This document shows positions 61,327 through 63,035 of a stretch of DNA of 64,000 bases, piece by piece. Numbering within the stretch: position 1 is the first letter of the stretch; every line of letters begins with the position of its first letter. The notes under the pieces were generated by a model. It was not told the origin of the DNA and made no database searches. It worked only from the letters and a program-made list of their open reading frames with translations. The stretch comes from Halobacteriales archaeon (lineage in GTDB: Archaea; Halobacteriota; Halobacteria; Halobacteriales; SKNY01), in contig SKQO01000080.1 in NCBI GenBank assembly GCA_007118975.1, forward strand, positions 1 to 64,000, written 5' to 3'. Made by a program: the position numbers and the translations under genes.

Positions 61327-61578
61327 CGCCTATACAGCCCTCTCGCGATCGGCTTCCAGTTTCAGTACTCCCGACCAACGATTGGGCGGTAGACGGTTCG
61401 TGACGGTGGTTTGGGCAGCGGCTAGCGGTTCGTGAGTTCTCGCCATACTGCAGTAAACGGCGGTCCAGTATAAATACGCACGCAAGTCGGCGAGGGCTAC
61501 CCCCAACTTCCGCTCGTGGTGGGGAGATGACCGGCATGCTCAGCGCCGTGTCGGAGTGTTTAACTCTTGCAGGCTAAG

Positions 61579-61621
61579 CCCCGTCCTCAAGGAGCGACCG
61601 AAGGGAGCGAGTAGGGCGGGG
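61579..61621 (+). repeat. Upstream copy of TnpB-element terminal hairpin
   Basis: CCCCGTCCTCAAGGAGCGACCGAAGGGAGCGAGTAGGGCGGGG; 36/43 identical to 62950-62992. Confidence 0.8.
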
Positions 61622-61684
61622 ATACAGCCGTACACTCCTTGACTTACCGAACGTTCAAGTGGCAGCCAGCCTACCAAATTCGTA

Positions 61685-62995
61685 GTGGTTGAGGAGACGT
61701 TCAACTACGTTGTAACGCCGGACTGCGACGAGACAGCCGCCGCAGCGTGGAGCGATATTCAAACCTGCCGCGACGTGTACAACCATGCACTCACGCAGGA
61801 ATACCGCCCCCGACCTGACTACGACAAACCATCGTACCGGGAGATGCAGAACAAAATCACGGCGTGGGAAGAGCGGTGGCCCAAATGGAGTACTGCGTAC
61901 TCCAAATGCCTGCAGATGGCTGTCCGTCGGCTCAAACAAAGCGAGAGCGTACTTGGGTCTCTTCAAGCCCGAGGCTATGACGTAGGGGGGTTGAAATGGA
62001 AAGCACTGCACGAATTCCGCAGCATCGTATACAACCAGTCCGGTTTCGACGTGGATCATCACACGGACCGGACTGCCCACGCGGTCGTGAACTTCTCCAA
62101 GATCGGTGATTTCCACCTCACCTACCACCGCCCACTCCCCGACGACGGAGCCATCACACTGATCATCCTGAAGAAAGAGAAAACCGGTGACTTGTCCGTC
62201 AGTATCGTCGTCGACTACGCCCCGGAATACCCGGAGAACCCGGCTGTCGAAGACATCGACCCGGAAGACACAGTCGGGATCGACCTCGGCATCACAAAGT
62301 TCATTCACAACTCAGACGGTCTTTCGTTCGATTCACTTGACGAGCAGCGTGACCGCGACCGAATTGACCGACGACACCGTGATCTCTCCCGGAAAGAACA
62401 CGGCTCGAACAATTGGGAGAAAGCCCGGCAACTACTTGCTCGGGCATACGACCGATTGCACAACCGGCGTGAAGACTACCGGCAGAAACTTGCCCACGAA
62501 TACACCACTCGGTACGACGCAGTGTTCCTCGAAGACCCAGACATGAAAGCGATGAAGGAAGATGGCAGGAATAGTCGGAATATTGCAGCGATGTCGTGGC
62601 GGCAAACAATTCAGGCATTCAAGCGCCACGGGGAGAAAAACGGGTGTTACGTCATCGAGGTGCCACCGGAAGGCACGACGAAACGTTGCTCCCAATGTGG
62701 GTGTAAGACGGAAAAGCCGCTATGGGTCCGTGAGCACTCGTGTCCCTCGTGTGGATTCGAAGTTGATAGGGACCACAACGCTGCGTTAGAGATCAAACGC
62801 CTCGGACTGCAACAACTCGGAATCGAAACTTCGGCGGAAGATGTAGGTCAGGGCATGGCAGAATCAACGCCTGCGGAGACTGCGCTCCCTGGGGACACTG
62901 AGAAAACACCCGATGATGTGTCTCCAAAGCGCGTCGTTGAAACAAAAAACCCCTGCCTCAAGGAGCCACCGAAGGCGGCGAGTAGGCAGGGGTAG
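61685..62995 (+). mobile_element. tnpB: IS200/IS605-family (IS1341-type) TnpB RNA-guided nuclease gene, no tnpA
   Basis: RuvC-I VGIDLGITKF, RuvC-II FLEDPDMKAM, zinc ribbon CSQCGCKT...CPSCGFEVDRDHNAALEIKRLG; full length. Confidence 0.95.
62950..62992 (+). repeat. 3' terminal hairpin of the TnpB element (likely omega/sot-RNA 3' structure), inside the tnpB 3' end
   Basis: CCCCTGCCTCAAGGAGCCACCGAAGGCGGCGAGTAGGCAGGGG followed by tagttcac. Confidence 0.75.
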
Positions 62996-63035
62996 TTCAC
63001 CTAGACAGCTTCAGGACCGCACAATCCGTAAAACG

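What the first reader, a model, noticed from the sequence alone, without database searches (positions are those of the whole stretch)
61579..62992. TnpB gene bracketed by two hairpins whose stem differences are compensatory
CCCCGTCCTCAAGGAGCGACCGAAGGGAGCGAGTAGGGCGGGG (61579-61621) and CCCCTGCCTCAAGGAGCCACCGAAGGCGGCGAGTAGGCAGGGG (62950-62992) differ at 7 of 43 positions. In the outer stem all four differences keep pairing: G-C/U-G in the left copy becomes U-A/G-C in the right copy. That implies selection on structure rather than sequence. The right copy is inside the tnpB 3' end, where IS1341-type sense-overlapping RNAs / omegaRNAs are known. The left copy in the matching frame reads SPVLKERPKGASRAG, like a TnpB C-terminus (NPCLKEPPKAASRQG), so it may be the right end of an older element or a second scaffold/decoy upstream of tnpB.
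Basis: partly seen in the sequence, partly recalled or inferred. Interest (0 to 1): 0.62.

Follow-up and report, generated by a model that had tools for sequence, protein, structure and literature searches.

The report
Two end hairpins of a TnpB transposon
The two look-alike hairpins are the left and right ends of one small, ordinary jumping gene of salt-loving archaea that carries tnpB; their matched base changes are real but expected, and this copy has probably lost the ability to move.

Summary
The two 43-nt hairpins differ at 7 positions, and all four outer-stem differences keep pairing. [quoted passage not shown]

Of 80 haloarchaeal tnpB relatives plus the window, 46 have the LE hairpin and 56 the RE hairpin. 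Covariance models built without the window separate the two: left copy 62.8 bits (LE model) against 42.3 (RE model); right copy 66.3 (RE) against 35.1 (LE). Autonomous tnpA+tnpB elements carry the same hairpins outside both genes. A sister genome shows a clean empty site. IS608-type guide/target pairing holds: the last LE guide base complements the last target base in 49 of 55 elements (permutations never exceeded 35). The RE guide is GAAG in 52 of 56.

So the left copy is neither an old right end nor, on this evidence, a TnpB decoy. The right hairpin probably also ends the omegaRNA: synonymous conservation rises to 83-88% there against about 45% in the gene body. In this copy both guides look damaged while the tnpB catalytic residues are intact, suggesting a stranded copy. 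New member of a known kind.

The parts
61559..61563 (+). Target sequence left of the element (TTTAA; CL/TAM = TTTA or TTAA, 1-nt uncertainty in the exact cut)
   Evidence: Homology with L010/L011 starts at TTYAAC; TTAN|C rule in relatives; empty site of a relative; inferred for this copy
61564..63000 (+). tnpB-only IS200/IS605 (IS1341-type) element; its first base may be 61563
   Evidence: Sharp ends of similarity with L010 and L011; LE and RE models
61572..61575 (+). 5' arm (GGCT) of the LE closing stem
   Evidence: Covarying helix 1 of the LE alignment, 93% paired, 4 of 5 pairs with double changes
61576..61578 (+). LE guide (GL) site, AAG; the fourth base (T in L010, AAGT) is missing
   Evidence: Alignment; rule
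61579..61621 (+). LE subterminal hairpin (the finding's left copy)
   Evidence: LE model 62.8 bits, E 1.5e-17; RE model only 42.3 bits
61622..61629 (+). ATAC + AGCC: 3' side of the LE, with AT after the hairpin as in IS608 (A42, T43) and the 3' arm of the closing stem
   Evidence: AT in 44 of 46 LEs; covariation
61685..62995 (+). tnpB, 436 aa, GTG start, RuvC triad D200/E283/D363 and zinc-finger CxxC pairs intact
   Evidence: Pfam Cas12f1-like_TNB 5.8e-18 and OrfB_IS605 1.5e-16; ISDra2 TnpB 9.3e-22; positions
62795..63000 (+). Probable omegaRNA (reRNA/sotRNA) scaffold overlapping the tnpB 3' end
   Evidence: Synonymous codon identity 0.64-0.88 here against 0.41-0.52 in the gene body, 76 relatives; by analogy with ISDra2 and H. 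salinarum omegaRNAs (PMC8612924, PMC12558985)
62946..62949 (+). RE guide (GR) site, AAAA here; GAAG in 52 of 56 elements
   Evidence: alignment
62950..62992 (+). RE subterminal hairpin (the finding's right copy), last codons of tnpB
   Evidence: RE model 66.3 bits, E 5.2e-14; LE model 35.1 bits
62996..63000 (+). TTCAC right terminus (CR = TCAC), last bases of the element
   Evidence: Invariant end of similarity; RE tails; empty site of a relative
63001..63020 (+). Flanking DNA that would be the omegaRNA guide (CTAGACAGCTTCAGGACCGC)
   Evidence: Position inferred from ISDra2 (PMC8612924); sequence

Best explanation
The two hairpins are the LE and RE subterminal imperfect palindromes of one non-autonomous IS200/IS605 element that carries only tnpB. 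As single-stranded DNA on the + strand they would be bound by a Y1 transposase (TnpA) supplied in trans. The guide just 5' of each hairpin pairs with the cleavage site (TTAN at the left, TCAC at the right) to position the cuts. They resemble each other because one TnpA must recognise both. Their stems drift by paired changes because shape, not sequence, is recognised there. The RE hairpin lies inside the tnpB 3' end and probably also forms the 3' part of the omegaRNA that guides TnpB to the empty site; the LE hairpin does not. Shown: the anatomy, the LE/RE identity, the covariation, the guide-target rule, a clean empty site in a relative, and an intact TnpB triad. Inferred: TnpA binding, omegaRNA production, and loss of mobility of this copy because both of its guides are altered.
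For: LE and RE hairpins at matching places in relatives (46 LE, 56 RE, 43 with both, window included). Models built without the window split the copies by 20 and 31 bits. Element ends coincide with the ends of similarity to L010 and L011. Of 30 tnpA loci, 11 have both hairpins outside the tnpA-tnpB unit. Empty site of L042 in L136, with no target duplication and a 19/20 match to the L042 RE-flank guide. Guide-target complementarity 49/55, 0 of 100000 permutations. GR GAAG with CR TCAC fits the positional pattern deduced from IS608 (PMC5934647). Covariation. Synonymous constraint at the tnpB 3' end.
Against: No empty site was found for the window element itself. No tnpA element with these ends was found in the host assembly, which is 78% complete. 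No Rfam omegaRNA/sot family matches the window or 20 relatives. No expression or binding data. About 24 of the 80 relatives, mostly more distant ones or loci cut by contig ends, lack a recognisable hairpin of this type.
Confidence: 0.95

Rival explanations
1. The left hairpin is the right end of an older, lost element of the same family.
For: The two hairpins are 84% identical, and in one frame the left copy reads like a TnpB C-terminus.
Against: It scores 20 bits better as LE than RE. It has LE-only features (closing stem, ATACAGC 3' flank, T.G pair at position 6) and lacks RE features (tnpB scaffold, GAAG, TTCAC). Orthologous LEs sit in the same place in dozens of relatives.
Confidence: 0.02
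2. The left hairpin works mainly as RNA: a decoy or regulatory scaffold in the tnpB 5' untranslated region that binds TnpB.
For: It resembles the RE hairpin, which ends the omegaRNA; the stem tolerates U.G pairs (T.G at position 6 in 38 of 46 LEs), which are more stable in RNA than in DNA.
Against: In tnpA-bearing elements the hairpin is outside tnpA and far from tnpB. Conserved guide/target complementarity next to it is explained only by DNA transposition. The upstream omegaRNA scaffold and the TTCAC motif are missing.
Confidence: 0.05
3. The hairpins are transcription terminators that insulate tnpB.
For: GC-rich stem-loops bracket the gene.
Against: The right one is inside the coding sequence and neither is followed by a T run. 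The conserved flanks are guides and cut sites, not terminator features.
Confidence: 0.03

Closest known systems
IS608 (Helicobacter pylori) and ISDra2 (Deinococcus), IS200/IS605 family
   Same: Subterminal LE and RE hairpins, 4-nt guides 5' of each hairpin pairing with the cleavage sites, AT just 3' of the LE hairpin, longer tip-to-hairpin distance at the left, insertion 3' of a TT-rich target without duplication (PMC5934647, PMC8612924)
   Different: No tnpA in the element; TTAN target and TCAC right terminus; LE has a covarying closing stem below the guide; both guides altered in this copy
Haloarchaeal IS1341-type/IS605 elements and PATEs (ISNph5-22, ISHwa17-29; Haloquadratum study PMC3119063)
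   Same: tnpB-only elements with near-terminal palindromes that can be alike at both ends, conserved target oligonucleotide, longer 5' than 3' tip
   Different: No direct sequence comparison with the ISfinder entries was possible here
Haloarchaeal sotRNAs/omegaRNAs (sot0042, sot2652; PMC8303175, PMC12558985)
   Same: Right-end hairpin and terminal motif at the tnpB 3' end, overlapping the coding sequence
   Different: No match to any Rfam family

Membership tests
IS200/IS605 transposon (IS1341-type, tnpB only) | Subterminal imperfect palindromes at both ends, forming hairpins on the same strand | tested here: met
IS200/IS605 transposon (IS1341-type, tnpB only) | Same ends as tnpA-carrying (Y1) elements | tested here: met
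   11 of 30 tnpA loci have both hairpins flanking the element
IS200/IS605 transposon (IS1341-type, tnpB only) | Insertion 3' of a short target without target duplication | tested here: met
   Shown for relative L042 against the empty site in L136; not found for the window copy
IS200/IS605 transposon (IS1341-type, tnpB only) | Guide next to the hairpin complementary to the cleavage site | tested here: met
   Met in the family (49/55; GAAG/TCAC in 52/56); the window copy itself deviates at both guides
IS200/IS605 transposon (IS1341-type, tnpB only) | Mobilisation by TnpA through single-stranded DNA | not testable with these tools
   Needs biochemistry
TnpB RNA-guided nuclease | OrfB_IS605 and TNB domains with RuvC D/E/D triad | tested here: met
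TnpB omegaRNA (reRNA/sotRNA) | Constrained non-coding RNA at the tnpB 3' end ending with RE hairpin and flank guide | tested here: inconclusive
   Synonymous constraint and RE covariation fit; no Rfam match; transcript not testable

The most novel reading that the evidence does not exclude
In these haloarchaeal elements the LE, but not the RE, has a second covarying stem closing beneath the hairpin, so that the target guide (AAGN) sits in an internal loop. That could be an LE-specific way of presenting or gating the guide, not seen in the main IS608 LE palindrome. Whether it has been described before was not settled.
Probability: 0.25. Interest if true: 0.35.

Novelty: new member of a known kind. 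Interest (0 to 1): 0.2.

Why it matters
It settles that matched hairpins around archaeal tnpB genes are transposon ends. It gives usable LE and RE models to delimit tnpB-only elements, their targets and likely guides. It also confirms, by natural covariation in 55 archaeal elements, the guide/target pairing worked out structurally for IS608. For the window itself it is routine annotation.

Tried and rejected
Rfam search of the window and of 20 relatives: no match. Empty site for the window element among 196 genomes of the order: only the neighbouring transporter gene matched. The 2015 sotRNA paper is not held. Older right end, terminator and decoy readings were considered and rejected or ranked low, as given under rivals.

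Full report
Observation. Both 43-nt sequences are present as stated. They form a 46-nt direct repeat of 83% identity. Their common core is found only at these two places in the window (0.00 expected by shuffling) and in the 3.43-Mb host assembly. The right hairpin folds far better than shuffles as RNA (z -4.2); the left is weaker (z -2.65). The four outer-stem differences are pair-preserving.

Gene. The enclosed ORF (61685-62995) is a TnpB: Pfam Cas12f1-like_TNB and OrfB_IS605, with ISDra2 TnpB among the best solved relatives. The RuvC residues D200, E283 and D363 and the two CxxC pairs are present. Only 120 nt separate the left limit from tnpB, so there is no room for tnpA.

Relatives. A scan of GTDB genomes gave 80 haloarchaeal loci. 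The left hairpin precedes tnpB and the right hairpin ends it in most of them: 46 LE, 56 RE and 43 with both, window included. LEs share CTAAGN[CCCC..GGGG]ATACAGC. REs share AGGAAG[CCCC..GGGG]TAGTTCAC, or the variant ending AGGAAGTCAC. Alignment with the two nearest relatives (87% and 62% identical TnpB) shows similarity starting at TTYAAC and ending at TTCAC. These are the element limits.

Left end or right end. I built covariance models from LEs (R1, 43 sequences) and REs (R2, 54 sequences) without the window. The left copy scores 62.8 bits with R1 and 42.3 with R2; the right copy scores 35.1 and 66.3. The left copy is therefore an LE. In the whole host assembly R1 also finds a second LE, next to a tnpB with three stops on contig C147; R2 finds no RE there.

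Covariation. In REs 97.7% of pair cells are standard and the covariation score is 0.324 against 0.104 in shuffles. In LEs the figures are 96.6% and 0.284 against 0.128. No shuffle reached either score, and slid structures fall to 0.014-0.083. These controls do not fully remove relatedness, but all double changes concentrate in the predicted stems. The LE has an extra closing stem (GGCGCT/AGCGCC; GGCT/AGCC in the window) with double changes in 4 of 5 pairs; it is not part of the RE structure. LE stem position 6 is T.G in 38 of 46 elements while RE position 6 is mostly Watson-Crick; I have no explanation for that asymmetry.

Autonomous partners. Among 30 tnpA (Y1) loci from the order, 11 carry this LE hairpin just 5' of tnpA and this RE hairpin 1.2-1.8 kb on. 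The LE therefore marks the element end and is not tied to tnpB. The host assembly has three Y1 hits, two of them with stops, none with these ends nearby.

Empty site. Joined flanks of L042 (Haloarcula amylolytica) match a sister genome continuously at 94%. That allele reads CTTAC|TGTCACGG, against TTTTAC|CTGAATTGAGG...TTCAC|TGTC in the filled one. Insertion is 3' of TTAC, without duplication. The 20 nt right of the L042 element, the would-be TnpB guide, match the empty allele at 19 of 20, as homing by TnpB would require (mechanism from PMC8612924).

Guide rule. In IS608 the cleavage sites TTAC and TCAA interact with guides AAAG and GAAT next to the hairpins (PMC5934647). Two of the pairs are stated in the text (A16:T-3 and A17:T-4); the remaining positions (third A with A, fourth complementary) are my deduction from the printed sequences. 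The same pattern fits here. At the right, GAAG (52 of 56) goes with TCAC. At the left, the last guide base complements the last base of TTAN in 49 of 55 elements, using all four bases (G-C 28, A-T 10, C-G 8, T-A 3); 100000 permutations never exceeded 35. AT follows the LE hairpin in 44 of 46, as at A42/T43 of IS608. Shared ancestry inflates the permutation result, but four different pairings argue against a single inherited coincidence.

This copy. The window LE has lost one base between AAG and the hairpin relative to L010 (AAGT), and its RE guide is AAAA instead of GAAG. Both should hinder excision, so I infer, at roughly 60%, that this copy can no longer be mobilised although tnpB is open and its triad intact. 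The exact left cut is uncertain by one base (TTTA|A or TTAA|C).

OmegaRNA. Among positions with the same amino acid in 76 relatives, identical codons are used 41-52% of the time in the body of the gene, 64-67% in codons 371-413 and 83-88% in codons 414-436. This fits an overlapping RNA of about 200 nt. H. salinarum omegaRNAs are described with a right-end hairpin and a terminal motif (PMC12558985), and haloarchaeal sotRNAs are processed from tnpB transcripts (PMC8303175). No Rfam model matches here.

Known or new. Near-terminal palindromes of tnpB-only IS605-type elements in haloarchaea, sometimes identical at both ends and with a longer tip at the 5' end, were described in 2011 (PMC3119063). 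The finding is a new member of that kind.

Noticed in passing
host contig C147:44028-45495 (L008, L123): A second element of the same family with a good LE (89 bits) and target TTTAAC, but a tnpB with three TGA stops and no recognisable RE: a relic.
   Followed up: partly
L019, L020, L024, L053, L056, L061, L086 (LE regions): Some LE hairpins carry palindrome-rich inserts of tens of bases inside the hairpin, reminiscent of the small repeats reported to insert into near-terminal palindromes in Haloquadratum (PMC3119063).
   Followed up: no
L074:4142-4230, L050, L044, L077: More distant tnpB relatives have an unrelated RE hairpin (e.g. GAAGCCTCGGGGCTTGACCCCGAGGCAGGTTCAC) but keep the GAAG guide and TTCAC terminus.
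   Followed up: no
LE hairpin stem position 6 in 46 elements; window 61584 and 61616: T.G pair in 38 of 46 LEs at a position that is mostly Watson-Crick in REs; the reason is unknown.
   Followed up: partly
host C35:33966, C137:863, C119:6556 (L090-L092): Three Y1 TnpA genes in the host assembly, two with in-frame stops, none with this element's ends nearby.
   Followed up: partly
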